This document shows, one piece after another, positions 7,141 to 48,374 of a DNA stretch of 51,031 bases. The notes beneath the pieces were generated by a model. That model saw only the letters and a list, made by a program, of their open reading frames with translations, ran no database searches and was not told the DNA's origin. Each line of letters opens with the position of its first letter. Positions within the stretch are counted from its first letter, which is position 1. Origin of the DNA: Gemmatimonadaceae bacterium (lineage in GTDB: Bacteria; Gemmatimonadota; Gemmatimonadetes; Gemmatimonadales; Gemmatimonadaceae); assembly GCA_025928185.1 (NCBI GenBank), contig JAICKA010000013.1, positions 1-51,031 on the forward strand. Reading direction: 5' to 3'. Made by a program: the position numbers and the translations under genes.

Positions 7141-7376
7141 CGGTGGAACGCTGGAACGGGCGCTGCGCTTGAACGGTGGAACGTGAACGACTCAGCGGGC
7201 AGAGAGCAGATCGCAGTCTTCAGACCGTTCCACCGTTCCACCGTTCCACCGTTCCACCGTTCCACCGTTCCACCGTTCCACCGTTCCACCGTTCCACCGT
7301 TCCGCCGTTCCACCGTTCCACCGTTCCACCGTTCCACCGTTCCACCGTTCCACCGTTCCACCGTTCCACCGTTCCA
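7141..7376. repeat. 8-bp tandem repeat (CCGTTCCA x19) with two inverted upstream units
   Basis: From 7225 to 7376 the sequence is 19 head-to-tail copies of CCGTTCCA. Eighteen are perfect and the tenth (7297-7304) ends in G. The inverted unit CGGTGGAACG occurs at 7141-7150 and 7174-7183, so a transcript could pair the upstream units with the array. The unit length is not a multiple of three, and all readings through it are shadow frames (for example PFHRSTVP periodicity). It lies between the GGT stop and the start of the LysM protein at 7411. Confidence 0.95.
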
Positions 7377-7410
7377 GCGTCACGGAACGGTCGGTGCATA
7401 AGACGGTGGC

Positions 7411-13460: not shown

Positions 13461-13481
13461 ATGGTCCATGGTCCATGGTCC
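13461..13481. repeat. ATGGTCC x3 direct repeat
   Basis: Three perfect copies of the 7-mer ATGGTCC lie 10 bases after the S9 stop. The run is locally palindromic (CCATGG). The same unit appears at 23711-23724. Confidence 0.85.
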
Positions 13482-13492
13482 AGCCCTTCGAT

Positions 13493-13596
13493 CCGTTCCA
13501 CCGTTTCACCGTTGCACCGTTGCACCGTTGCACCGTTGCACCGTTGCACCGTTGCACCGTTGCACCGTTGCACCGTTCCACCGTTCCACCGTTTCA
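13493..13596. repeat. Degenerate 8-bp tandem repeat (CCGTTNCA x13) abutting a start codon
   Basis: Thirteen contiguous 8-mers of the form CCGTT(C/G/T)CA: CCGTTGCA dominates the centre (13509-13572), flanked by CCGTTCCA and CCGTTTCA. It is the same family as the array at 7225-7376. The next partial unit CCGTCC runs straight into the ATG of the potassium channel at 13603. Confidence 0.95.
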
Positions 13597-13602
13597 CCGT
13601 CC

Positions 13603-26117: not shown

Positions 26118-26403
26118 GGAAAAACCCTCGGAGTGGAGGCGGGATGGAGTGAGGCCGCGGGAGGCGTGGCGCCGCGGGCACCCTTTGATTCTGCGGAACG
26201 GATGGCCGCAGCGCCAGTCCATCCCTGCCGCGCGCGGCCGACCAACCCTTCTTCTTGTTGGTGCGCCGCGTACGGCACCGGAAATTCCCGAGCGGCGCTC
26301 CACAAGAAGCTCCAGCCGCGGCGGATGAAACTCAATGCAAATCTGCATTCATCTGCGCAATCTGCGGCCGCTTCCCAGGCCGCGGCGCACCGAGTGCACG
26401 CGA
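26118..26403. other. Intergenic region with a copy of a 31-bp dispersed repeat
   Basis: There is no convincing gene here. Bases 26341-26371 match 48344-48374 in the same orientation at 29 of 31 positions (ATCTGC...GCGGCCGC). The rest is GC-rich spacer containing the S9 upstream region. Confidence 0.6.
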
Positions 26404-27780: not shown

Positions 27781-28210
27781 ACGATGGCCATCGCGCCGGT
27801 CATCAATCGGTCCAAGGCTCGCGCGCGGGGTCGGTCTGGTGCGCCGGATCGGGTTGGACTGAATGAAGGACGCGGAAGAGGACGGAAATTGACGGACGAG
27901 GCGCGGATTGGCTGCATACTGGCGCATCGAGTCCGTCGCGTCACACGGCAAAAGCAGTTGGTTTTTTGACCGATCCGTGCCATCCGTGCCATCGCTGTTC
28001 AACCTGTTGCGGCTGGACCGGATCATTTCAGTGCGGAGAGTCGCGAAGCCGCGGAGAACTGCGGAGAACTGCGGAGAACGGCGGAGAACGGCGGAGAGGG
28101 TTCCAATCATCAACACCTCCAGCAACGCCCCTCCGCGCCTGTCCGCAGTTCTCCGCAGTTCTCCGCAGCCCCTTCCCTCTCCCTGCGAGGTAGCCGGTGT
28201 AACCGCCCCG
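27781..28210 (+). repeat. Dispersed ~390-bp intergenic element, copy C1
   Basis: No gene lies in 27754-28263. Read on the plus strand, this stretch aligns colinearly with the minus strand of 45235-45655. Shared blocks include GGTTGGACTGA, a 21-base identical block (27894-27914 against 45544-45564), a stem at 27920-27925/27938-27943, a T6 run (27962-27967), GATCCGT, CCTGTTG, TCGCGAAG, 10-bp repeat arms and an identical 19-mer (28131-28149 against 45285-45303). The ends are approximate. Whether it is an RNA gene or a non-autonomous mobile element is unresolved. Confidence 0.8.
28051..28168. repeat. 10-bp-unit palindrome inside C1
   Basis: Five head-to-tail units of GCGGAGAAC(T/G) fill 28051-28100, the last one degenerate. 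The reverse units CCGCAGTTCT occupy 28143-28168. The arms can pair over a 42-base loop containing ATCAACACC and CCAGCAACGCC, both conserved in the C3 copy. Confidence 0.9.
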
Positions 28211-28263
28211 GCAATCCAGCCGATTCGGCGCGGCGCGCCCGCCCGCGCACCGCCGCTGCGTCG

Positions 28264-29045: not shown

Positions 29046-31118
29046 ATGTTGGCGCAGAGTCTCGTGCTCTTCTCCTTCACTCTCCGCTCTCCGTCCATCG
29101 TGCGCATCGTCATTCTCCTCGCGCTGATCTCATCGGCCGCGCTCGGCCAGACGCAACCATCGGCGCCGCTGGCGCCAGCCGCCACCGCCGCGGGCCGGCG
29201 GCCGGTGCCCGGTCCCGTGTACGAAATTCCCGGCTACACGCGCGCGGTCGCGCGCGGAACGCGAACGCGCACCGGCGTGCCGGGCCCGGCGTACTGGGTG
29301 CAGCACGCGCGATACTCGATCGACGCATCGCTCGACGTGCCGACGAATCGCATCTCGGGCAGCGAGCGCGTCGTGTATCTCAACAATTCGCCGGACACGC
29401 TGCGACGCCTCGCGGTATATCTGCGGCAGAACGCGTTCAAGGCAGGCAATCCGCGCCGCGATCCCGCACCGATCACCGGCGGCGTCACGCTGACCCGCGT
29501 CGTCGTCAACGGCCGGGTGATGCCGCCGGCGTCGACCGGAGTGGCCGCAGTGCCGATCACCGACGTGTCGCACGAGCGGCACGCGCCGCCGGCGGCGTAC
29601 ACCGTCGACGGCACCGTGATGTGGATTCCGCTCGCCGCGCCGCTGCTGCCGCACGACAGCACGCGGCTCGAGTTCGCGTGGTCGTATTCGCCGCCGCTCG
29701 CGCCATCGGACGGACGCGAAGGCAGGGAAGAGCACCTCTACTTCATGGGCTATTGGTATCCGCAGGTGGCGGTGTACGACGACGTGAACGGCTGGGTGGC
29801 GGATCCGTATCTGCTCGAGGCGGAGTTCTACATGGATCCCGCCGACTACGACGTTCGCGTGACGGTGCCACACGGCTGGGTCGTGGGCGCGACGGGAACG
29901 CTGGCGAACGCGGCGCAGGTGCTGTCGCCGGCGGCCCGGGCCCGACTGGCGGACGCGCGGCGCACCGGCGCGGTCGTGCACGTCGTCGAGCCAGGCCCCA
30001 AGGCGCGCGCGGCGTTCGCGGGCGGCGGCGCAACCGCCACGTGGCATTTCGTGGCGCCAGACGTTCGAGATTTCTCATGGGGTACGAGCGACCGCTACGT
30101 GTGGGACGCAACGCGCGCGCTCGTGGCCGGTGACGACGGTCGCCGCGACACGGTCGACATCAACAGCTTCTACCGGCGAACCGCGGCGGCGGCGGCGTGG
30201 GCGCTGGGCGGTGCGCGCTTCACGCGCGATGCGGTCGAGCAGCACTCGAACTATCTCTGGAAATATCCGTGGCCGCAGATGACGTCGATGGAAGGCGTGC
30301 TTGACGGCGGCGGCATGGAGTATCCGATGATGACGCTCATGCAGCCATGGGCTGATACGCTGTCACTCGCCGGCGACTTGATGCATGAAACCGGTCACAT
30401 GTGGTTCCCGATGCAGGTCGGGTCGAGCGAGACGCGCTATCCGTGGATGGACGAAGGCTTCACGCAGTACGACGTCGCGCAGGGCATGCGCGCGATCTAC
30501 GGCGAGCCGCGCGCCGGCGGCCGAGCGGGCGACTCGGAGCCCGGGCAGCGCGCGCTGTATCTCCAGCAGGCGCGCGCCGGCGAGGACATGCCGCTCATGT
30601 GGCCCGGCGACCTGTTCCCGCAGGAGCTCTACTTCATCATGTATTACGACAAGACCGCGCAGGTGCTCGCTGCGTTGCGCGGCGTGATGGGTGAGTCCGC
30701 GTTCCACCGTGCGTTCCGCGAGTACGGGCGCCGGTGGATCGACAAACACCCCTATCCATATGATTTCTTCAATACGATGTCCGCGGCCGCCGGCCAGGAT
30801 CTCTCCTGGTTCTTCACGACGTGGTTCTACCAGCCGTGGCCGCTGGACCAGGCGATCGCGTCAGTGGACACGCGCGGCGATTCGACGGCGATCACGATCG
30901 AGGATCGCGGCCTTGCGCCGATGCCGGTGAAGCTCGCGATCACGCGATCGGACGGACGCGTCGAGCATGTCGACATTCCCGTCGATGTCTGGCTCTCAGG
31001 CGCGCGACGGACGACACTGCGCGTGCCGTCCGCTCCGGCCATCACGAAAGTCGAAATCGATCCGGACGCGTTGTTCCCGGACATGGACCGCACGAATCAG
31101 GTGTGGACGCGACGTTGA
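29046..31118 (+). CDS. M1 family zinc metallopeptidase, secreted
   Basis: The 690-residue protein has a signal (IVRIVILLALISSAALGQ), an N-terminal beta domain and the M1 active site HETGH (447-451), then 18 residues to Glu470 in DEGFTQY. The exopeptidase motif is GGGMEYPMMT, a GAMEN variant. M1 enzymes remove N-terminal residues from peptides. An alternative GTG start at 29100 puts the signal peptide first, and TATGTT at 29044 could then be a -10, so 29100 may be the true start. A strong palindrome follows the stop by 53 bases. Confidence 0.9.
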   Translation: MLAQSLVLFSFTLRSPSIVRIVILLALISSAALGQTQPSAPLAPAATAAGRRPVPGPVYEIPGYTRAVARGTRTRTGVPGPAYWVQHARYSIDASLDVPTNRISGSERVVYLNNSPDTLRRLAVYLRQNAFKAGNPRRDPAPITGGVTLTRVVVNGRVMPPASTGVAAVPITDVSHERHAPPAAYTVDGTVMWIPLAAPLLPHDSTRLEFAWSYSPPLAPSDGREGREEHLYFMGYWYPQVAVYDDVNGWVADPYLLEAEFYMDPADYDVRVTVPHGWVVGATGTLANAAQVLSPAARARLADARRTGAVVHVVEPGPKARAAFAGGGATATWHFVAPDVRDFSWGTSDRYVWDATRALVAGDDGRRDTVDINSFYRRTAAAAAWALGGARFTRDAVEQHSNYLWKYPWPQMTSMEGVLDGGGMEYPMMTLMQPWADTLSLAGDLMHETGHMWFPMQVGSSETRYPWMDEGFTQYDVAQGMRAIYGEPRAGGRAGDSEPGQRALYLQQARAGEDMPLMWPGDLFPQELYFIMYYDKTAQVLAALRGVMGESAFHRAFREYGRRWIDKHPYPYDFFNTMSAAAGQDLSWFFTTWFYQPWPLDQAIASVDTRGDSTAITIEDRGLAPMPVKLAITRSDGRVEHVDIPVDVWLSGARRTTLRVPSAPAITKVEIDPDALFPDMDRTNQVWTRR

Positions 31119-31171
31119 GATGCCGCCGGCCGTGGGCGCCTGAATGATATTGAAATTCTGATGGCAGGCCT

Positions 31172-31221
31172 CAAACGAACGTGGCCTGGTCCGAGTGATC
31201 GGACCAGGCCACGTTCGTTTG
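31172..31221. terminator. Perfect 22-bp inverted repeat between convergent genes
   Basis: Bases 31172-31193 are the exact reverse complement of 31200-31221, and one further A-T pair leaves a GTGA loop. It sits between the M1 stop (31118) and the VPS10 protein stop (31232). There is no T-run on either side, so termination may need Rho. Confidence 0.8.
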
Positions 31222-31231
31222 CGGACTACGA

Positions 31232-34200
31232 CTACTTCGCCGGCGGCAGCGCGATGGCGGACTGACCAGCGGCGCGCCGCTTGGCGTTCAGCGCGGCCAG
31301 CCCGGTTGTCGACAACGTGTGCCAGCGGGCCATCACACCCGCGGCCTGCGTGCGTGCGCGATTCACCGCCGCAACCTCACTTGCCGTCGGCGTCACATCG
31401 GCGCTTTGCATGGCCATGGCCGCCGCCAGCTCCGCGCCGCTCGCGCTCTCGAGCGTGGCGGGACCACTCGCCGCGCCGCCGCGGCGGAAGCCGCCGAATC
31501 CTCCGCGTCCGCCGCGGCCCGCTGCCGCTGCCGGTGCGAGCGAATCCACCCGCGCCTTGAAGGCGAGGGCCTCGGCGTCGCCGGCACGCGCCAGCTCGGC
31601 CGAAAGTGCGCGCGCCTGCTCCAGTGCGGCCTGAGCCGCCGCGGCGCCGTCGTACATCTCGGTCGTCAACGTCGCCAACTGCGCGAGACCGGCCGCCGGC
31701 GTCGTCACGCGCGGGTCGAGCTTGAGCGTGAGCGGCTGCGAGTAATGCTTGCCGTTGACGGTGAGACGCACGGTGTATGAACCAGGCGGCGCCCACGGCG
31801 CGTTCACACTCGGATAGGTGTGATGCGGTACGGCACCTTCGCCGCCTTCGCCCGCCGGTGCCGACTCGGCGCCGATCGGATCGTAGTGCAGATCCCAACT
31901 GAATCGATGTACGCCGGCGCTCGTCGACAGATTCATCTCCGGCGCCGCCCAGTAGAGCGGGAGATTGCAGTCGGGCGCCGACGGCTGGCGCTTGCAGATT
32001 TCGTTGTACGCGGCGGGATTCAGCGCCGGGTCGGGTTCGAGGCGCGGATCGTTGCTCGAGTACGAGCGTACGAGCTTGCCAGCGCCGTCGAGAATGTCGA
32101 GCGTGACCGGACCGGACACGTTTGCTGGCAGATAGTAATCGATGATTCCGCCGGGCACCGGATTTTCGCCGGCCGGCAGCTCCGGCGGCCACGGCGTGGG
32201 ATCGTTCGTGCCGAGCCGCACGCGAACGGCCGTCAGCGGCTTGAACAGATACGTCGCGTTGTTCGACTCCGCCGCGCGCAGCGCCGCCGTCTGACGCAGC
32301 GGCGTGAGGTTGTCGAGAATCCAGTACCCGCGGCCGTGCGTGCCGGCGATGAGATCCGAGCAGAGGCACGTCGAATCGTCCTTCACCTCGATGTCGCGCA
32401 CCGAGATCGCCGGCATGTCGAGCCGCAGCGACTGCCAGTGATCGCCGTCGTCGTACGAGACCCACACCTGCGTCTCGGTCGAGGCGTATAGTAATCCTTT
32501 AACGTGCGGATCCTCACGGATGGAATTGGCCGCCGCGCCCGGCGCGATGCCGTTGTCGATCTCCGTCCATGTCTTGCCGCCATCGTGCGTGCGCCAGAAG
32601 TGCGGATTCATGTCGTCGAGGCGCAGCGTGTTCGCGGCGGCGTACGCCGTCTGCGTGTCGAAGTGGCCGGCGTCCATGTTGAAGATGCGCGTCCACGCCT
32701 TGATCGCCGGCGGCGTGACGTTGTGCCACGTCGCACCTCCGTCCGTCGTCACCTGGATGTTGCCGTCGTCGGTGCCCGCCCACAGCACGTTGACGCTGCG
32801 CGGCGATGGTGCGAGTGCGGTGATGGTGCCCTGCGGACTGACCGTCACCTGGCTCGCGTACTTGCCCGCGTTCGCCGGAACGGTCCACGTCTGGCGCGCG
32901 AGATCGGGGCTGATGCGCGTCCACGAGTGCCCGTTGTCCGTCGTCTTCCACACCACGTTCGACGCGTAGAACAGCACGTGCGGATCCACCGGCGACCACT
33001 CGATCGGCATCGTGCGCACGTTGCGGCTGTATGTATCGCCGTTCGGGCCACGCCCGCTCATGTCGGGACCTACGGATGTCTTCTGTCCCGTACGCCGATC
33101 GTAGAGTGACACGCCGTTGCGCTCACTGCCGAACACGAGATCCGGATTCTTCGGATCGGGCGCCGCTTCGCCGTATTCCTGGATGTCGACCGGATGCCAG
33201 TCGTGGAAAGTGATCTCGCCGTCGGACGAGCGGCTCTTTACGCACGCGGAGCCCGAGTCCTGCTGTCCACCGCAAACGCGATAGAAGAACGAGTTGTCCG
33301 TCGACACGTGGTACATCGCGGCCGTGGGCTGCGTGTACCAGTTGCTCCACGATTCGCCGCGATTGGCCGACACCACTGCGCCCTGATCGGCGACCTGCAG
33401 GATGATGTCGGTGTTGTTCGGGTTGATCCACGTCTTCTGATAGTCGTCGCCACCGGGCGCGCCGCGCACGGCCGACCACGTGAGGCCGCCGTCTTCCGTG
33501 CGCCAGAATACTGTCGACGAGCTGTAGACGACATTCGGGTTCTTGGGATCGACGACGATCGTTGGCAGATCGCCGCCGCCGATGCGCGCGAGCGGCCGCG
33601 GATCCTGTGGGTGCGGGCCGCCTGGCGCATCATCCACCGCCAGATGCCAATGCTCGCCGCCGTCGGTCGACTTGAAGAACCCGACGACGCCGGTCGTCGA
33701 ACTGCCGCCGCGACCGCCGCGTCCGCCCGCTGCCTGCCCCGGAATCGACGTGCCCGCGACTGCCGCGTAGATGATGTTCGGATTGCTCGGCGCGATCGCC
33801 AGGTTCGCCTGAATGATCGACGGCAAGCCGTCGGTGAGCTGATGCCACGTCGTGCCGCCGTCCGTCGACTTGAAGATCCCGTTGCCCGCGCCGCCGAACG
33901 CGCCGTTCTCGGAGAAACCCTGCTGCTGCTGCCAGAGCGTGGCATAGACGACGTTCGGGTTGCTCGGATCGATGCGAACGTCGTTGCCGCTCGTATACTC
34001 GTCCTTGTACAGGACTTTCTCGAACGTCTGGCCGCCGTCGGTCGAGCGGAAGATGCCGCGCTCCGGGTTCGGTCCGTACGGATGACCGAGCGCGGCGACG
34101 AACAGGCGATTCGGATTCGTCGGATCGACGTCGATCATCGCGATCATCTGCGAGTTGCGCAGCCCGAGATGCGTCCACGTCTTGCCGGCGTCGGTGGATT

Positions 34201-34564
34201 TGTACACGCCGTCGCCGACCGCGAGATCGGGCCGGATGATGCCGGCGCCGGTGCCGACGTAGATGACGTTCGGATTGGACGGCGCAACGGCAATGGCGCC
34301 GATCGAGCCGGTGGGTTCCTTGTCGAACAGCGGCACCCACGTCGAGCCGTAGTCGGTTGAGCGCCAGACGCCGCCGTTGTCGAAGCCGACGTAGAAGACG
34401 TTCGGTTGACTCGGTACACCGGAAAGCGCGCGCGCACGGCCGGCGCGAGTCGGACCGATCTCGCGCCAGTGCAAGGCGGCCGCTGGATCGACGGATTGGG
34501 CGCCGGCCGGAAGCGCCGCGGCGCCGAGCAGGAGCAGAGAGATTCGGTACAGGGAAGTACGCAC
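31232..34564 (-). CDS. VPS10/sortilin-type BNR-repeat protein, secreted
   Basis: The 1110-residue protein has a signal peptide (ISLLLLGAAALPAGAQ) and about eleven Asp-box/BNR turns, such as RSTDYGSTW, KSTDAGKTW, KSTDGGTTW, KTTDNGHSW and RTHDGGKTW. These indicate two large beta-propellers over residues 30-760. A C-terminal beta region follows, with a FlgD-like piece (VTLDILDGAGKLVRSYSS). Family members are annotated as glycosyl hydrolase-like, but no catalytic pair is evident; binding or a peptidase-associated role is possible. Gly/Arg inserts occur twice (GGRGGRGG and GRGGRGGFGGFRRGG). It starts at GTG 34564 after GAGG. Confidence 0.88.
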   Translation of the reverse strand: MRTSLYRISLLLLGAAALPAGAQSVDPAAALHWREIGPTRAGRARALSGVPSQPNVFYVGFDNGGVWRSTDYGSTWVPLFDKEPTGSIGAIAVAPSNPNVIYVGTGAGIIRPDLAVGDGVYKSTDAGKTWTHLGLRNSQMIAMIDVDPTNPNRLFVAALGHPYGPNPERGIFRSTDGGQTFEKVLYKDEYTSGNDVRIDPSNPNVVYATLWQQQQGFSENGAFGGAGNGIFKSTDGGTTWHQLTDGLPSIIQANLAIAPSNPNIIYAAVAGTSIPGQAAGGRGGRGGSSTTGVVGFFKSTDGGEHWHLAVDDAPGGPHPQDPRPLARIGGGDLPTIVVDPKNPNVVYSSSTVFWRTEDGGLTWSAVRGAPGGDDYQKTWINPNNTDIILQVADQGAVVSANRGESWSNWYTQPTAAMYHVSTDNSFFYRVCGGQQDSGSACVKSRSSDGEITFHDWHPVDIQEYGEAAPDPKNPDLVFGSERNGVSLYDRRTGQKTSVGPDMSGRGPNGDTYSRNVRTMPIEWSPVDPHVLFYASNVVWKTTDNGHSWTRISPDLARQTWTVPANAGKYASQVTVSPQGTITALAPSPRSVNVLWAGTDDGNIQVTTDGGATWHNVTPPAIKAWTRIFNMDAGHFDTQTAYAAANTLRLDDMNPHFWRTHDGGKTWTEIDNGIAPGAAANSIREDPHVKGLLYASTETQVWVSYDDGDHWQSLRLDMPAISVRDIEVKDDSTCLCSDLIAGTHGRGYWILDNLTPLRQTAALRAAESNNATYLFKPLTAVRVRLGTNDPTPWPPELPAGENPVPGGIIDYYLPANVSGPVTLDILDGAGKLVRSYSSNDPRLEPDPALNPAAYNEICKRQPSAPDCNLPLYWAAPEMNLSTSAGVHRFSWDLHYDPIGAESAPAGEGGEGAVPHHTYPSVNAPWAPPGSYTVRLTVNGKHYSQPLTLKLDPRVTTPAAGLAQLATLTTEMYDGAAAAQAALEQARALSAELARAGDAEALAFKARVDSLAPAAAAGRGGRGGFGGFRRGGAASGPATLESASGAELAAAMAMQSADVTPTASEVAAVNRARTQAAGVMARWHTLSTTGLAALNAKRRAAGQSAIALPPAK

Positions 34565-43499: not shown

Positions 43500-44939
43500 A
43501 TGCGCTCGTTCCGCATCGCCGCTCTGATCGCTGTTGCCGTCGCCGCCCCGCTCACGGCGCAAGCTCCGCAGTCGTTGACGCCGCATCAGCGGCTCGCGCG
43601 CGAGATCTACAATCAGCTTATCTCGATCAACACGGCCGACACCGTCGGCTCGGTGACGCGGGCCGTGGATGCCATGGCGGCACGTTTCCGCGCCGCGGGC
43701 TTTCCGGACTCCGATGTGAAAATCCTCACGCCGCCCGGCAAGCCGACCAAGGCGAATCTCATCGTGCGCTATCACGGTACTGGCGGCGCGAACGGGCCGA
43801 AGCCGCTGCTGCTGCTCGCGCATCTCGACGTCGTCGCCGCCAAACGCGCCGACTGGCCGCGCGATCCGTTCACACTCGTCGAGCAGAACGGTTTCTTCTA
43901 CGGCCGCGGCACGAGCGACGACAAGGCCATGGCGTCGATCTTCACGGCCAACCTGCTCGGCTACAAGCAGGAGGGATGGAGGCCGTCGCGCGACATCATC
44001 CTGGCGCTCACCGCCGACGAGGAGAGCGGCGACTCGAACGGGCCGGAGTGGATCGTGCGCGATCGTCGCGATCTCATCGACGCTGCATTCGCCATCAACG
44101 AGGGTGGTGGCGGCACGCTCGGCGGCTCGGGCATGAAGGTGCATCCGCTGTTCAACTCGATCCAGGCAGCCGAGAAGGTCTACGTCGACTTCACGCTCAC
44201 GGCGACCAACCCGGGCGGCCACTCCAGCGTGCCGCGTCCCGATAACGCGATCTACGAGCTGGCCGACGCGTTGCATCGGATCAGCGCGTTCAAATTTCCA
44301 GTCGCGCTGAATCCGACGACCCGCGGCTTCTTCGAGCAGTCGGCCAGGGTGGAGACGCCGGAGATCGCCGCCGCGATGCGTGCCGTGGTCGCCAATCCGA
44401 ACGACGCGGCCGCGGCGGCGACACTGTCGAAGCGACCGGAGTTCAACGCGCTGCTGCGGACCACGTGCGTCGCGACACGCCTCATCGGCGGACACGCGTA
44501 CAATGCGCTGCCGCAGAGCGCTTCGGCGAACATCAACTGCCGCATCCTGCCCACGTCGAGTCTCGACGAGGTGCGCTCGACGCTGCTGCGCGTCATCGCG
44601 GACACCGCGATGAAGCTCACCTACACTCAGGCGGACCGTCCGCGCTTTCCCGCGTCGGCGCCGTCCATTGACCCGACGCTGCTCTCCGCCGTGACCGACG
44701 TGACGCACGAGCTGTTCGGCAACATCCCGGTGATTCCAGTCATGTCCACCGGCGCGACGGACAGCCACTGGCTCCGCGAAGCCGGCATTCCATCGTACGG
44801 CGTGAGTGGAATCTTTTCGCTTCCGGGCGAGACCAACGCCCACGGCCGCGACGAAAAGCTGCGCGTCAAATCGTATTACGACGGTTTAGAGTTTCTGGAT
44901 CACCTGGTGAGGCGACTGGCTGGACCGGTGCAGCCGTAG
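43500..44939 (+). CDS. M20 family metallopeptidase, secreted
   Basis: The 479-residue protein has a signal peptide (IAALIAVAVAAPLTAQ) and the di-zinc ligands in LLAHLDVV (His, Asp), GRGTSDDKAM (Asp), TADEESGD (Glu pair) and NAHGRDEK (His). A central dimerisation domain contains GGHSSVPRPDNAI. It is a carboxypeptidase- or aminoacylase-type enzyme, and differs enough from the M20 gene at 26404-27753 to be a distant paralogue. The ATG at 43500 follows a pyrimidine-rich leader. Downstream lies the repeat-rich region. Confidence 0.9.
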   Translation: MRSFRIAALIAVAVAAPLTAQAPQSLTPHQRLAREIYNQLISINTADTVGSVTRAVDAMAARFRAAGFPDSDVKILTPPGKPTKANLIVRYHGTGGANGPKPLLLLAHLDVVAAKRADWPRDPFTLVEQNGFFYGRGTSDDKAMASIFTANLLGYKQEGWRPSRDIILALTADEESGDSNGPEWIVRDRRDLIDAAFAINEGGGGTLGGSGMKVHPLFNSIQAAEKVYVDFTLTATNPGGHSSVPRPDNAIYELADALHRISAFKFPVALNPTTRGFFEQSARVETPEIAAAMRAVVANPNDAAAAATLSKRPEFNALLRTTCVATRLIGGHAYNALPQSASANINCRILPTSSLDEVRSTLLRVIADTAMKLTYTQADRPRFPASAPSIDPTLLSAVTDVTHELFGNIPVIPVMSTGATDSHWLREAGIPSYGVSGIFSLPGETNAHGRDEKLRVKSYYDGLEFLDHLVRRLAGPVQP

Positions 44940-44954
44940 GGGGTTCTTCGTACC

Positions 44955-45130
44955 GTGATCCGTAGTCCGTCCGTTGGGGCCGTCGCGCGGGACCAGTACG
45001 GCGCGCCGAATCGGGTTGGACTCACTTGGGGACGCGGATCTTGCGGAAACTGGCGAACGAGGCGTGAATCGGGTCTGCGTGGCGCAACGAGCTCCGCGCG
45101 CCAAGTCAAACAACGACAAAAGACTTTGTG
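44955..45130 (+). repeat. Dispersed element, half copy C2
   Basis: The plus strand here matches the 5' half of the element: CGGGTTGGACT, then 37 bases (45028-45064) identical at 36 positions to the reverse complement of 45555-45591. A stem TGGCGC/GCGCCA (45080-45085/45098-45103) follows. It trails the M20 gene and faces copy C3. No gene is seen in 44940-45672. Confidence 0.8.
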
Positions 45131-45268
45131 GGGGTGGCGTCCCGGTCAACTCCCCAATCCGATAATCCGCGAACTCCGCAGCCCCGTTGGACTCTTTCTG
45201 GCGCGAAAGACTCTCGCGCCACCCGGTCGCGCGGCTCCGGCTACGTCTCAGGGAGAGGAACGGGGTCG

Positions 45269-45400
45269 CGGAGAACGGCGGAGCACTGCGGACAGGCGCG
45301 GAGCGGCGTTGCTGGCGGTGTTGATGAATGACGAACAACGATTTCGCCGTTCTCCGCCGTTCTCCGCCGTTCTCCGCCGTTCTCCGCCGTTCTCCGCAAC
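45269..45400. repeat. 10-bp-unit palindrome inside C3
   Basis: Five units of TCTCCGCCGT (45351-45400, the last ending CAAC) face reverse units GCGGAGAACG and GCGGAGCACT (45269-45288). The loop carries ATCAACACC and CCAGCAACGCC on the minus strand, matching C1. Confidence 0.9.
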
Positions 45401-45487
45401 TTCGCGACACTTTCCTACGCAATGATGCCGACCCAGCCCCAACAGGTGTGAAACACAGATGCCACGGTGGGGACGGATCGAACGAAC

Positions 45488-45510
45488 AAAAAAAGCCAAA
45501 TGCTTTTGGC
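45488..45510 (-). terminator. Intrinsic terminator in C3
   Basis: The minus strand reads GCCAAA-AGCA-TTTGGC followed by seven T. The stem is perfect. It lies 163 bases after the ADOP permease stop and would end that transcript, or an RNA from the element itself. C1 has a degenerate form (T6 at 27962-27967). Confidence 0.78.
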
Positions 45511-45672
45511 CTGTGGCGCGAGAGAGACTCGGCGCGCCAGTAACAGCCAATCCGCGCCTCGTCCGCCAGTTTCCGCAAGATCCGCGTCCCCAACTCAGTC
45601 CAACCGTATTCGGCGCGACAGTCTCACCCCGCGCGACGATCACGACCGGCTACTGGCGACGGACTACGGACC

Positions 45673-48168
45673 CTATTCCGTTCGCAACGCCACCTGCGGG
45701 TCGACCTTCGCCGCGCGCCGCGCCGGGAGCCAGCTCGCCGCGATCGTCACGAGCAGCAACGTCACCGTCACGAGTCCGAAGACCAGCGGGTCCTTCGCTG
45801 ATTCCTGGAACAACAGCGGCTTCACCCAGTGCGCTGCGCCGATGGCGATCGCGGCGCCGATGACCAACCCGAGGACGCCGAGCTTCATCCCGTCTGTCAC
45901 GACGAGGCGCACGACGTCGCCCACTTGCGCGCCGAGCGCAATGCGAACGCCCATCTCGTGGGTGCGCTGCGTGACGTTGTAGGCGATGACGCTGTAGAGA
46001 CCAACGGCGGCGAGAACCAGAGCGAGTCCGCCGAAGGCGACGAACATCCGGGCGCCCACGGTCCAGGATTGCATCTGGTCGCCGATGATTTCGCTCAGCG
46101 GCGTCGTCGTGATGTACGACGCGCCCGGCATCTCGTGCTGCAAACGACGGCGCACCGACTCCGCAAAGCTCGTCGCCGTGCCCGCGGTGCGGACGGCGAG
46201 GCCGGCGCTGCCCGTCATCTGCATCGACGGCACGTAGTACGTGTAGACGCCGGAGTCGCTCGCGAGGCTCTGCATGTGAATGTTCTCAGTCACGCCGACG
46301 ACGGTGGTGCACGGCACAGTGTCCGCATTGAGGCGAATGCACTGGCCGATCGGGTCGCGCCCGGGCCAGAGTGTCTTCGCCATGCCTTCGCTCACAACGG
46401 TCACCTTCGGCGCGAGCTTCGTATCCTGATTCGTGAACGCTCGGCCGCGAACCACGCGTGTCCCGTAGGTCGCGAAATAGTCGGGACTCACGGCGTTGAG
46501 GTAGAAGTCGCCCAGCTTTCCGACGGTGTCGATTCCCTGAACGAAGAGGCTGGTGCTCCAGAAGCTCCAGAAAGGCGTCGAGCGCGAGAGCGCGGCGTGT
46601 GTCACGCCCGGGGTCGCCTGGGCCGCGGCGAGCAGCCGATCCTGAAGCTGCTGCGTCTGCGTAGTGTCGAGCGTCTCGCCCCGCATGTTGAGATTTACGA
46701 GAAGTACGTGCTCCGGATCGTAGCCGAGACGGACCGAGCGCACGTTGGTGAGACTGCGCACGAACAATCCCGCGCCGACGAGCAGCACCACTGACAGCGC
46801 GCCTTGAATTACGAGCAGCGCGGCGCGCAAATGCGAGCGGTCGTGCGTGCCTTCACGCACGCCTGCCTTGAGGTCGTCGACCATGCTGCGGCCGGCACGC
46901 AGCGTCTGGAACATCGGCGCGAGCCCGGTGAGCGCGCCGACGACGAGCGCGGCCGCCGCCGTGAACAGCAGGGTGCGATTGTCGGTGAGCGTCGCCGTGG
47001 GCGCATCCTTCGCCATCAGCACCGCGCGGAGTGCCGCGCCGCCCCACTGCGCAACGAGCAGGCCGGCGACACCACCGGCGATCGCCAGCACCACACTCTC
47101 GGTGAGCAGCTGTCGCATCAGGCGTGCGCGGCTTACGCCCAGCGCGAGCCGTACCGCGATCTCACGGCGGCGGCGCAGTGCCCGCGCGAGCAGGAGATTG
47201 GCGACGTTCGCGCACGCGATGAGCAGCACGAGAATCGCGACGCCGCCGACCCACGTCGCGATCTTGGCGACGCTCGACTCGTTCGGCCCGCGCTCCGACA
47301 GGATCGAGCCGGCGATCGCGTGCGGTTTGACGAGCGCGATCGGTGTGGCCTTCGGTCGGCCGGCGGTCTGCAGCAGATAGTCGTGCCGCATGACGTTGCT
47401 CAGATCCGCGTTCGCCTGCGCGATCGTGACGCCTGGTTTGCGCCGGCCGATGAACGACATCCATCCCCAGCTGTACGTGTTCCACCAGGACTCGCCCTTC
47501 TTCAGCCAGCTGAACGTGCGCGCCTGCACGGAGCCGTAGCTCGTGATCGGAATGAATACCGCCGGCGGCTGGTCGGGCCACAGTCCGACGAATCCCGCCG
47601 GGGCAACGCCGATCACCGTGTACAGCTCCGGCCCGATCTGCAGCTTGCTTCCGAGCGCGTCCTTTCGCTCGCCGAACTGCGTGCTCCAGTATGCGTGGCT
47701 CAGCACGACGACCGGTTGGCCGCTCGGAATCGAATCTTCCGCCGCGGAGAAGTAGCGGCCGAGCACCGGCGGCGCATCGAAGAATCCGAAGAAGCTCGCG
47801 CTGACGATACCGACGTGCATCTCGTGCGCGGCCTCGCCGACGCCGATAGCGATATCGCGCGTCGTATAGCCGGCAATGCTCGACATCGACTTCGCGTTCG
47901 CGGCAAAATCGCGGTAGCGCGCGAACTGGCCGCCGCTGTTCGCCACTTCCTTGCCGCGAAATGTCTGGTAGATGTAAATGCGATGCGCCGTCGACGGATC
48001 GCGCAGCATCGGAGGGGGCCGGAACAACATCCGGTCGACGATGCCGAACATCGCCGCATTCGCGCCGATTCCCAGCGCGAGCGTGACGATGACGCCGGTT
48101 GTAAACCCGGGCTTGGACCGCAGCGCGCGGAACGTGTACCGAAGATCTTGGCGAAGCGTGTCGAACAT
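45673..48168 (-). CDS. ADOP-type ABC transporter permease (MacB/FtsX-like)
   Basis: The 831-residue protein begins DLRYTFRALRSKPGFTTGVI with TM1 (about 21-42) and a large periplasmic MacB-PCD domain (45-280). A three-helix FtsX block follows (starting WVGGVAILVLLIACANVANL), then a second periplasmic domain and a final FtsX block ending VTIAASWLPARRAAKVDPQV. This duplicated architecture is the acidobacterial-duplicated-orphaned-permease type, found without its own ATPase gene, as here. The substrate is unknown. ATG 48168 has no strong Shine-Dalgarno. A C3 terminator follows the stop. Confidence 0.92.
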   Translation of the reverse strand: MFDTLRQDLRYTFRALRSKPGFTTGVIVTLALGIGANAAMFGIVDRMLFRPPPMLRDPSTAHRIYIYQTFRGKEVANSGGQFARYRDFAANAKSMSSIAGYTTRDIAIGVGEAAHEMHVGIVSASFFGFFDAPPVLGRYFSAAEDSIPSGQPVVVLSHAYWSTQFGERKDALGSKLQIGPELYTVIGVAPAGFVGLWPDQPPAVFIPITSYGSVQARTFSWLKKGESWWNTYSWGWMSFIGRRKPGVTIAQANADLSNVMRHDYLLQTAGRPKATPIALVKPHAIAGSILSERGPNESSVAKIATWVGGVAILVLLIACANVANLLLARALRRRREIAVRLALGVSRARLMRQLLTESVVLAIAGGVAGLLVAQWGGAALRAVLMAKDAPTATLTDNRTLLFTAAAALVVGALTGLAPMFQTLRAGRSMVDDLKAGVREGTHDRSHLRAALLVIQGALSVVLLVGAGLFVRSLTNVRSVRLGYDPEHVLLVNLNMRGETLDTTQTQQLQDRLLAAAQATPGVTHAALSRSTPFWSFWSTSLFVQGIDTVGKLGDFYLNAVSPDYFATYGTRVVRGRAFTNQDTKLAPKVTVVSEGMAKTLWPGRDPIGQCIRLNADTVPCTTVVGVTENIHMQSLASDSGVYTYYVPSMQMTGSAGLAVRTAGTATSFAESVRRRLQHEMPGASYITTTPLSEIIGDQMQSWTVGARMFVAFGGLALVLAAVGLYSVIAYNVTQRTHEMGVRIALGAQVGDVVRLVVTDGMKLGVLGLVIGAAIAIGAAHWVKPLLFQESAKDPLVFGLVTVTLLLVTIAASWLPARRAAKVDPQVALRTE

Positions 48169-48244: not shown

Positions 48245-48374
48245 GCCGCAGATGAACGCCGGTACCGACTCGAACAACTGAGCCGCAGATCTCGCAGACA
48301 AACGCAGATACGGCGACACTCCAAGGAATGTTTCTGCCGTTCAATCTGCGTTCATCTGCGCAATCAGCGGCCGC
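48245..48374. repeat. GCAGAT-unit palindrome with a dispersed 31-bp arm
   Basis: GCCGCAGAT occurs at 48245-48253 and 48282-48290, and AACGCAGAT (48301-48309) pairs with ATCTGCGTT (48344-48352). The right arm 48344-48374 recurs at 26341-26371 (29/31). It lies between the amidase stop and the ADOP start, which are both on the minus strand. Confidence 0.8.

What the first reader, a model, noticed from the sequence alone, without database searches (positions are those of the whole stretch)
27781..28210. Dispersed ~390-bp intergenic element: candidate structured RNA or non-autonomous mobile unit
Two loci 17 kb apart carry the same ordered set of blocks: a lead block, a 21-base identity, a short stem, a T-run, GATCCGT, TCGCGAAG, a 10-bp-unit palindrome and an identical 19-mer. 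They are in opposite orientation (C1 plus, C3 minus at 45235-45655). Neither contains a plausible gene. Conservation of pairing and order over substantial base divergence suggests selection on structure or a transposed unit. I know of no named family with this layout.
Basis: partly seen in the sequence, partly recalled or inferred. Interest (0 to 1): 0.75.

Follow-up and report, generated by a model that had tools for sequence, protein, structure and literature searches.

The report
Nested palindromic repeats after gene ends
A bacterium of the Gemmatimonadaceae carries dozens of copies of a palindrome-within-palindrome DNA repeat, often sitting just behind the stop codons of genes; it looks like a spreading non-coding element and not like a conserved RNA gene.

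Summary
C3 is 44981-45638 (-), 658 bp bounded by ~111-127-nt inverted repeats (TIRs, 80% complementary). C1 (27822 to ~28208, +) lost most of its right TIR. The own genome (3.71 Mb, Gemmatimonadaceae) has 79 TIR cores (reversed control 0) and at least 58 matching segments, median pairwise identity 76%. The anatomy is nested: inward-facing heptamers (GTCCRTG)n, TIR, small hairpins, then a (GCGGAGAACN)n palindrome. Heptamer palindromes also occur empty and around a second palindromic family; decamer palindromes occur alone in another genus. Among 36 elements with genes on both sides, 14 lie between convergent genes (background 7 of 86 gaps); they lie nearer to stop codons (median 28 nt) than to start codons (98 nt), 7 sense and 9 antisense. 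At three loci, genus mates with both flanks lack the element. Inner helices show no covariation beyond shuffles; Rfam finds nothing. Target-site duplications and a Y1 transposase were sought and not found. Best reading: a non-autonomous, MITE-like foldback repeat, found in three of six genus members held and expanded in this one, tolerated or used at transcript ends; how it moves is unknown.

The parts
44981..45638 (-). C3, complete element (TIR to TIR), 658 bp
   Evidence: inverted arms 44981-45091 / 45528-45638, 111 nt, 80% complementary; family HMM positions 2-702, E 5.7e-198
45512..45636 (-). C3 left TIR (element orientation)
   Evidence: TIR consensus 1-123 at 90%
44981..45103 (+). C3 right TIR (inverted copy)
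45514..45539 (-). small hairpin TGGCGCG...CGCGCCA at the inner end of the left TIR
   Evidence: read from the sequence; in the whole-element fold these bases may pair otherwise
45483..45512 (-). hairpin followed by a T-run (terminator-like: AGGCCAAAAGCATTTGGCTT + TTTTTGTTCG); no more such sites than in shuffles
   Evidence: 1 found; shuffles mean 1.1
45345..45397 (-). decamer array (GCGGAGAACN), 5.3 copies, first arm of the inner palindrome
   Evidence: TRF
45265..45303 (+). second, inverted decamer arm
   Evidence: inverted repeat I10
45657..45672 (-). outer heptamers GGTCCGTAGTCCGTCG, directly behind the MacB-like gene's stop codon
44958..44973 (+). outer heptamers on the other side (ATCCGTAGTCCGTCCG), inward-facing
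27822..28208 (+). C1, element with right TIR lost or decayed
   Evidence: family HMM positions 3-463, E 2.9e-102
27822..27946 (+). C1 left TIR
   Evidence: 85.6% to TIR consensus positions 2-124
28051..28097 (+). C1 decamer array, first arm
   Evidence: TRF 4.7 copies, 97%
28128..28168 (-). C1 decamer array, inverted arm
   Evidence: inverted repeat I9 and TRF row 28142-28168

Best explanation
It is a non-coding, non-autonomous foldback (MITE-like) repeat of one Gemmatimonadaceae genus. SHOWN: dozens of copies with TIRs of ~111-127 nt; a nested build of inverted repeats (heptamer arrays outside, TIR, a decamer palindrome inside); siting near stop codons and between convergent genes; absence from the orthologous sites of the genus mates that could be tested. 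INFERRED: copies spread by being copied or moved in trans by a machinery not identified here. They survive where they do no harm: behind stop codons, away from promoters, and near or inside older palindromes. Once there, the strong hairpins can end or shield transcripts from either side, in either orientation, which would explain why they accumulate between convergent genes. The decamer module is probably a second palindromic element that landed near the dyad centre of the TIR element: G005 copies lack it, and decamer palindromes occur alone in G017.
For: 79 TIR cores in the own genome, reversed control 0. Both ends in 28 of 56 fetched segments, plus C3. Of 58 elements 36 had a called gene on both sides: 14 convergent, 16 tandem, 6 divergent vs 7, 48, 31 of 86 element-free gaps of >=60 bp (Fisher, convergent p 1.1e-4). 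Median 28.5 nt to a facing stop codon (n=44) vs 98 nt to a facing start codon (n=28), Mann-Whitney p 2e-7; 7 sense, 9 antisense. TAG stops 25 of 56 next to elements vs 46 of 199 elsewhere. Orthologous sites (distance between aligned flanks): C134:45647 774 bp vs 219/229/372 bp in G005/G002/G004; C134:86109 708 vs 33/16/224 bp in G002/G003/G005; C146:159659 836 vs 113/66/103/54 bp in G002/G001/G004/G005. Nesting: inward heptamers at 52 of 85 TIR ends vs 13 outward, and at 6 of 193 element-free gene ends; empty heptamer palindromes; a second palindromic family in the same heptamers; decamer palindromes without TIRs at two G017 loci. TIR core in 118 family genomes sampled: 80 hits in G000, 8 in G005, 1 in G001, at most 1 in any other.
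Against: No target-site duplication: mean longest shared word 6.04 vs 5.74 in mismatched flank pairs, though 4 of 28 reach 8 nt against 6% of mismatched pairs. No copy carrying a transposase was seen; the only transposase family searched for (Y1, PF01797) is absent. Outer ends are variable (0-7 heptamers per side by a loose mask; octamers in a few copies). No recent burst is visible: one near-complete pair exceeds 91% (94%, 495 columns) and one partial pair has 97.5% over 278 columns, with similar flanks. The terminator role is untested: 0 and 1 terminator-like sites at C1 and C3 (shuffles 0.5 and 1.1). At C134:45647 two relatives have longer gaps (G003 3.8 kb, G001 2.6 kb), so those are not cleanly empty sites.
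Confidence: 0.62

Rival explanations
1. Primarily a cellular part: a bidirectional transcription terminator or mRNA 3'-end protector, kept and multiplied by selection; mobility is incidental.
For: Strong folding (C3 with flanks -426 kcal/mol, z -16, 20 shuffles; C1 -193, z -7.4, 100 shuffles). Siting near stop codons and between convergent genes. At one orthologous site the relative G004 has a different palindromic octamer array and G003 a perfect hairpin next to the stop codon (by eye).
Against: At C134:86109 the convergent genes of G002 and G003 have almost no space between them and no hairpin is evident there (by eye), so no such part is needed. No covariation in the inner helices. No excess of hairpin+T-run sites.
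Confidence: 0.2
2. Structured regulatory RNA.
For: Ordered blocks with hairpins, no ORF, low folding energy; the TIR stem is slightly above shuffles and arms match within copies in 18 of 26.
Against: Inner helices at shuffle level. 7 sense, 9 antisense. No Rfam hit. Large internal deletions and a core-less form are tolerated. The G005 copies printed share the TIRs, not the core.
Confidence: 0.05
3. Not transposition but growth in place: palindromes arise and enlarge at the dyad of existing intergenic palindromes by template switching or tandem duplication of 7-10-mers, then spread by gene conversion.
For: Nested arrays of heptamers, ~9-mers and decamers in inverted pairs; no clear TSD; no transposase found; one copy has nearly identical arms (L067, 97.8%); a different repeat unit at the same site in G004.
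Against: The ~90-nt non-tandem TIR core is homologous among 79 dispersed places and shared with G005 and G001, which needs copying between sites.
Confidence: 0.1
4. Artefact of binning or assembly.
For: 90.1% complete, 5.3% contaminated genome in 288 contigs; 11 segments were flagged at a contig end.
Against: Copies lie inside long contigs (6 on one 194-kb contig), in regions syntenic with genus mates; a homologous copy is in G001.
Confidence: 0.02

Closest known systems
Bacterial MITEs (e.g. RUP, Correia/NEMIS, MITEAba12)
   Same: short, non-coding, TIR-bounded, dispersed, intergenic; pneumococcal BOX/RUP/SPRITE even insert into one another (PMC10969869, passages seen)
   Different: TIRs ~111-127 nt against ~4-30 bp, usual length <500 bp and AT-rich (PMC10969869, passages seen); here long forms of about 500-757 bp, no clear TSD, no cognate IS found, outer tandem heptamers
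YPAL / RU-2 of Yersinia
   Same: not AT-rich, no TA ends, targets span or adjoin dyad symmetries (PMC2229807, passage seen)
   Different: 168 bp, internal inverted repeats, TSDs of 3-26 bp; here no clear TSD and ~111-127-nt terminal repeats
ERIC (127-bp intergenic repeat)
   Same: intergenic repeat unit compared to MITEs (PMC2759123, start of abstract in a listing; palindromic build recalled)
   Different: length and nesting differ; no sequence comparison was made
REP / BIME / REPIN with RAYT
   Same: extragenic palindromes, hypothesised to act in termination and mRNA stabilisation (PMC3733652, start of abstract in a listing)
   Different: 20-40 bp units; no Y1 transposase in this genome
Tandem heptamer repeats (GGGNATC in Xanthomonas/Nostoc; TAACTGA in Beggiatoaceae)
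   Same: 7-nt tandem units, over-represented between genes; GGGNATC often within 50 bp of stop codons on the coding strand (PMC4692102, abstract and section 13; PMC4679880, abstract)
   Different: here the heptamer is GTCCRTG, often in inverted pairs that enclose other palindromes

Membership tests
MITE | terminal inverted repeats | tested here: met
   both ends in 28 of 56 fetched segments plus C3; far longer than typical
MITE | no transposase gene inside | tested here: met
   no called gene lies inside an element. Overlaps by >60 nt: L059 and L084 (71 and 104 nt at a called gene start), L072 and L088:3566 (short fragments in small called ORFs), and C1 (extended M20 start) (own caller, genes of 90 codons or more)
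MITE | target-site duplication | tested here: not met
   mean shared word as in mismatched flank pairs, 28 elements; 4 of 28 reach 8 nt vs 6%; could be lost with age or hidden by heptamers
MITE | cognate autonomous element with the same TIRs | tested here: inconclusive
   reading the 79 places, no facing TIR pair encloses a longer insert except across neighbouring copies; the assembly breaks at many copies and is incomplete; transposase families other than Y1 were not searched
REP/REPIN | 20-40-bp palindrome with RAYT (Y1 transposase) in the genome | tested here: not met
   PF01797: 0 matches in the own genome, 5 of 14 control genomes ring; unit size differs
Rfam RNA family | covariance model match at gathering score | tested here: not met
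   0 matches over the window
Structured RNA | compensatory changes in helices | tested here: not met
   inner helices at shuffle level; TIR stem slightly above; own counts on the consensus fold, not R-scape
Intrinsic terminator | GC hairpin followed by a T-run | tested here: inconclusive
   C3 one site, C1 none; shuffles mean 1.1 and 0.5; CCAAAAGCATTTGGTTTTT in the family consensus
Intrinsic terminator | transcripts end there | not testable with these tools
   no transcriptome

The most novel reading that the evidence does not exclude
Gemmatimonadaceae harbour a class of self-nesting palindromic tandem-array elements that insert at the dyad centre of earlier intergenic palindromes, without target-site duplication and without a conventional transposase. 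They build up layer by layer into portable bidirectional transcript ends behind stop codons, the repeat unit differing from species to species (GTCCRTG in this genome, GGTGGACA at one site of G004, GCGGAGAACN here and in G017).
Probability: 0.15. Interest if true: 0.8.

Novelty: new variant of a known kind. Interest (0 to 1): 0.52.

Why it matters
How palindromic repeats without a known transposase spread in bacterial genomes is an open question. This family gives a countable set of copies, relatives with sites that lack it, layered nesting that might be ordered in time, and a siting rule (near stop codons, between convergent genes). That makes two things testable: whether palindromes are preferred landing places for other palindromes, and whether such repeats act as transcript ends.

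Tried and rejected
Covariance model (build_rna_model): not built, because the copies showed no covariation in the inner helices. RNAalifold inside a script returned an empty structure and the script stopped; pair counts were redone on the fold of the consensus, which biases towards that structure.

Naming the organism by the TIR: an exact 21-mer had no match in genome contigs, and a longer gapped pattern none in viral contigs; both tools say that records of this genome may be left out. A protein scan gave Gemmatimonadaceae/Gemmatimonadetes MAGs among its best rows; equal contig lengths suggest that G002 is JAQBQB01 (RYN_362) and G005 is JAICWO01 (LS_FP_2_bin.53).

Sites in the window itself: no clean empty site for C1 or C3. 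The C3 neighbours are rearranged in G005, and at C1 the G004 gap is larger. L065 and L066:11103 were dropped because synteny is broken.

REP/RAYT: rejected. Insertion with TSD: no clear support. Order of decamer gain: 6 of 7 core-less copies fall in one clade of 7, which also holds L058, a copy with the core (support 0.99, midpoint root). Loss in one sublineage is therefore possible; only the G005 copies and the G017 palindromes favour insertion. Other deletion forms exist (L071, L079).

Possible IS: copies at C192 (L082) and in G001 (L139) are interrupted by one near-identical sequence. A 34- to 48-aa start of its ORF gave no credible family (one PNPase row below its cut-off, none, none in plasmids). 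An IS256-type start is my recollection only.

Literature: eight searches; among the rows listed (several lists were capped) I saw no paper on a Gemmatimonadota repeat of this kind. Only open-licence papers are held. Seen: abstract and outline of PMC4679880; abstract, outline and section 13 of PMC4692102; found passages of PMC2229807 and PMC10969869; listings with starts of abstracts for the rest.

Full report
WHAT IS THERE. The two loci share a real element. C1 and C3 align over 401 columns at 77.8% identity (302 bits against at most 23.8 in 50 shuffles; 133 bits for the part left of the decamers alone). The finding's outline missed the far end of C3: arms 44981-45091 and 45528-45638 are complementary (111 nt, 80%). 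C3 is therefore a 658-bp unit with terminal inverted repeats (TIRs). C1 (27822-28208) matches family positions 3-463 only; a remnant of its right TIR near 28212-28234 is doubtful (E 6-8).

FAMILY. A BLAST search of the own genome with C1 gave 123 pieces. The TIR core 20-mer at <=3 mismatches occurs 79 times (38 plus, 41 minus), with 0 hits for the reversed control. 54 further stretches of the genome were fetched. A profile built from 21 copies with matches at both TIRs finds 56 segments in them; with C1 and C3 that makes 58. Some are fragments, and contig-end pieces may be halves of one copy. At least three more pieces lie outside this set (L238, L239, L240). Both ends were present in 28 of the 56. 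Long copies are about 500-757 bp. Median pairwise identity is 76% over 1005 pairs among 48 sequences of >=250 nt. The closest near-complete pair has 94%; one pair has 97.5% over 278 columns only.

DISTRIBUTION. In 118 genomes sampled from the family, the TIR core (<=2 mismatches) has 80 hits in G000, 8 in G005, 1 in G001 and 0 or 1 elsewhere (7 genomes with one); 2 of the 118 genomes have one hit of the reversed control. Heptamer arrays (<=1 mismatch): 190 hits in G000, 3, 7, 0, 1 and 0 in G001, G005, G002, G003 and G004. The decamer array occurs in G000 (82 hits), G017 (8) and G302 (1) of 298 phylum genomes sampled. G001 was not in that sample; its single copy does carry decamers. The G005 elements printed are short (162-313 bp in seven), share the TIR and show no decamer core; the decamer pattern has no hit in G005. 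The organism is taken as Gemmatimonadaceae: genus mates G002 and G005 have contigs of the same length as named Gemmatimonadetes/Gemmatimonadaceae MAGs. The TIR was not found in genome contigs (exact 21-mer) or viral contigs (longer gapped pattern).

ANATOMY. From outside in: inward-facing heptamers (GTCCRTG)n; a ~90-nt non-tandem TIR; hairpins of the type TGGCGCG..CGCGCCA; a CCAAAAGCATTTGGTTTTT hairpin with T-run; ATCCGTNNN units; a (GCGGAGAACN)n palindrome with a short or a ~100-nt longer loop; and complementary blocks in reverse. Seven copies lack the decamer module at nearly the same junction; six of them fall in one clade of seven, with one copy that has the core (support 0.99). Inward heptamer pairs lie within 70 nt of 52 of 85 TIR ends and at both ends of 17 of 29 elements; outward ones at 13 of 85 (CCATGG is its own complement), against 6 of 193 gene ends without the element. 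Heptamer palindromes also stand alone (e.g. L112, L113, L114). They also border a second repeat, itself palindromic (376 nt, 76% to its own complement), with three long copies (C134, C249, C1), two with heptamers on both sides and one on the left only. In G017, four loci with arrays of the decamer lack the TIR (no family-profile hit outside the core); in two of them (L241, L243) the array is a palindrome, behind or near a stop codon by eye.

SITING. Genes were called with a codon-usage script of my own, not with a standard caller. 36 of 58 elements had a called gene on both sides; the other 22, C1 among them (contig ends, overlapping or missing calls), were dropped from the count. Elements overlapping a called gene by >60 nt are L059, L084 (gene starts), L072 and L088:3566 (small fragments) and C1. 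Arrangement: 14 convergent, 16 tandem, 6 divergent, against 7, 48 and 31 of 86 element-free gaps of >=60 bp in the same stretches and the window (Fisher convergent p 1.1e-4, divergent p 0.05). Distance to a facing stop codon has median 28.5 nt (n=44), to a facing start codon 98 nt (n=28), Mann-Whitney p 2e-7. In 14 of 16 tandem pairs the stop side is the nearer (p 0.004). Orientation is 7 sense, 9 antisense (all). The space to the stop codon is often filled by heptamers that begin directly behind it (by eye). TAG stops are 25 of 56 next to elements and 46 of 199 elsewhere (p 0.0023); the heptamers can supply a TAG themselves (inference). C3 fits: it fills the gap between an M20 peptidase gene (43500-44939, +) and a MacB/FtsX-type permease gene (45673-48168, -).

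SITES WITHOUT THE ELEMENT. Three loci with conserved neighbours were examined in five genus mates; the numbers are distances between aligned flanks. C134:45647: 774 bp in G000; 219 (G005), 229 (G002) and 372 bp (G004), while G003 (3.8 kb) and G001 (2.6 kb) have longer gaps. By eye, G004 has an inverted array of GGTGGACA-type octamers next to the same stop codon, and G003 a perfect hairpin there. C134:86109: 708 bp vs 33 (G002), 16 (G003) and 224 (G005); G001 and G004 had no match on the right side. In G002 and G003 the two convergent genes meet with almost no space (by eye). C146:159659: 836 bp vs 113 (G002), 66 (G001), 103 (G004) and 54 (G005); G003's printed stretch also looks short. In the family survey G002-G004 have no TIR core at <=2 mismatches and G001 one, elsewhere. 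These are best read as insertions on the G000 lineage, although loss elsewhere cannot be excluded for each.

MECHANISM TESTS. Target-site duplication: with heptamers masked, the longest shared word between flanks averages 6.04 against 5.74 for mismatched flank pairs; 4 of 28 have >=8 nt against 6%. No clear signal, with low power. Y1 transposase: none. Other transposase families were not searched. Reading the listed places, no facing TIR pair encloses a longer insert except across neighbouring copies. Structure: C3 with flanks folds at -426 kcal/mol (z -16), C1 at -193 (z -7.4), as expected of inverted repeats. Covariation over 48 sequences: no inner helix exceeds its shuffle maximum; the TIR stem does slightly (paired 0.841 vs maximum 0.840; 69 double-change cells against mean 45, maximum 65 of 200 shuffles). 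Arms match better within a copy than between copies in 18 of 26 copies (mean 0.788 vs 0.765), most in L067 (0.978). I read this as decay after dispersal with some arm homogenisation; weak selection on the outer stem is not excluded.

CONCLUSION. It works like a MITE (foldback, dispersed, non-coding), but MITE membership is not claimed because TSDs were not found and no partner is known. Its build and siting suggest elements that tolerate, and perhaps prefer, older palindromes behind stop codons. A role as two-way transcript end is plausible and untested. Interest is moderate: a new variant of a known kind with a testable nesting rule.

Noticed in passing
window 7224-7380 and 13493-13600: Octamer arrays (ACCGTTCC, 19.6 copies; CCGTTGCA, 13.5 copies) between called genes; the second follows a heptamer array (13464-13480), and inverted octamers lie just before the first (about 7143-7185).
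   Followed up: partly
window 31166-31227: A hairpin with 29-nt arms (93% complementary, loop 4) between two convergent genes (29046-31118 and 31232-34564), terminator-like in position.
   Followed up: no
window 26340-26371 and 48343-48374: Two copies (94%) of a 32-nt sequence AATCTGC(A/G)TTCATCTGCGCAATC(T/A)GCGGCCGC, another short dispersed repeat.
   Followed up: no
L257, L258, L259 (G000 C134:129694, C249:6971, C1:677): Second palindromic repeat family (376 nt, two copies 88% to the first), flanked by the same heptamers (both sides in two, left side in one).
   Followed up: partly
L142 18490-18665 (G004:C30): Inverted GGTGGACA-type octamer array enclosing small palindromes, next to the stop codon where G000 carries the TIR element.
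   Followed up: partly
L082 3174-3373 (G000:C192) and L139 6024-6183 (G001:C243): Element copies in two species interrupted by one nearly identical sequence with an ORF start (MARTRKQD...), perhaps an insertion sequence; in G000 the junction lies, by eye, in the loop of the first small hairpin.
   Followed up: partly
L241-L244 (G017): Decamer arrays without TIRs in another genus of the family; in L241 and L243 they form palindromes behind or near a stop codon.
   Followed up: partly
L052 and L085 right flanks: Two copies share a variant right end (97.5% over 278 columns) and about 70 nt of similar flank up to a gene end, perhaps paralogous gene ends.
   Followed up: no
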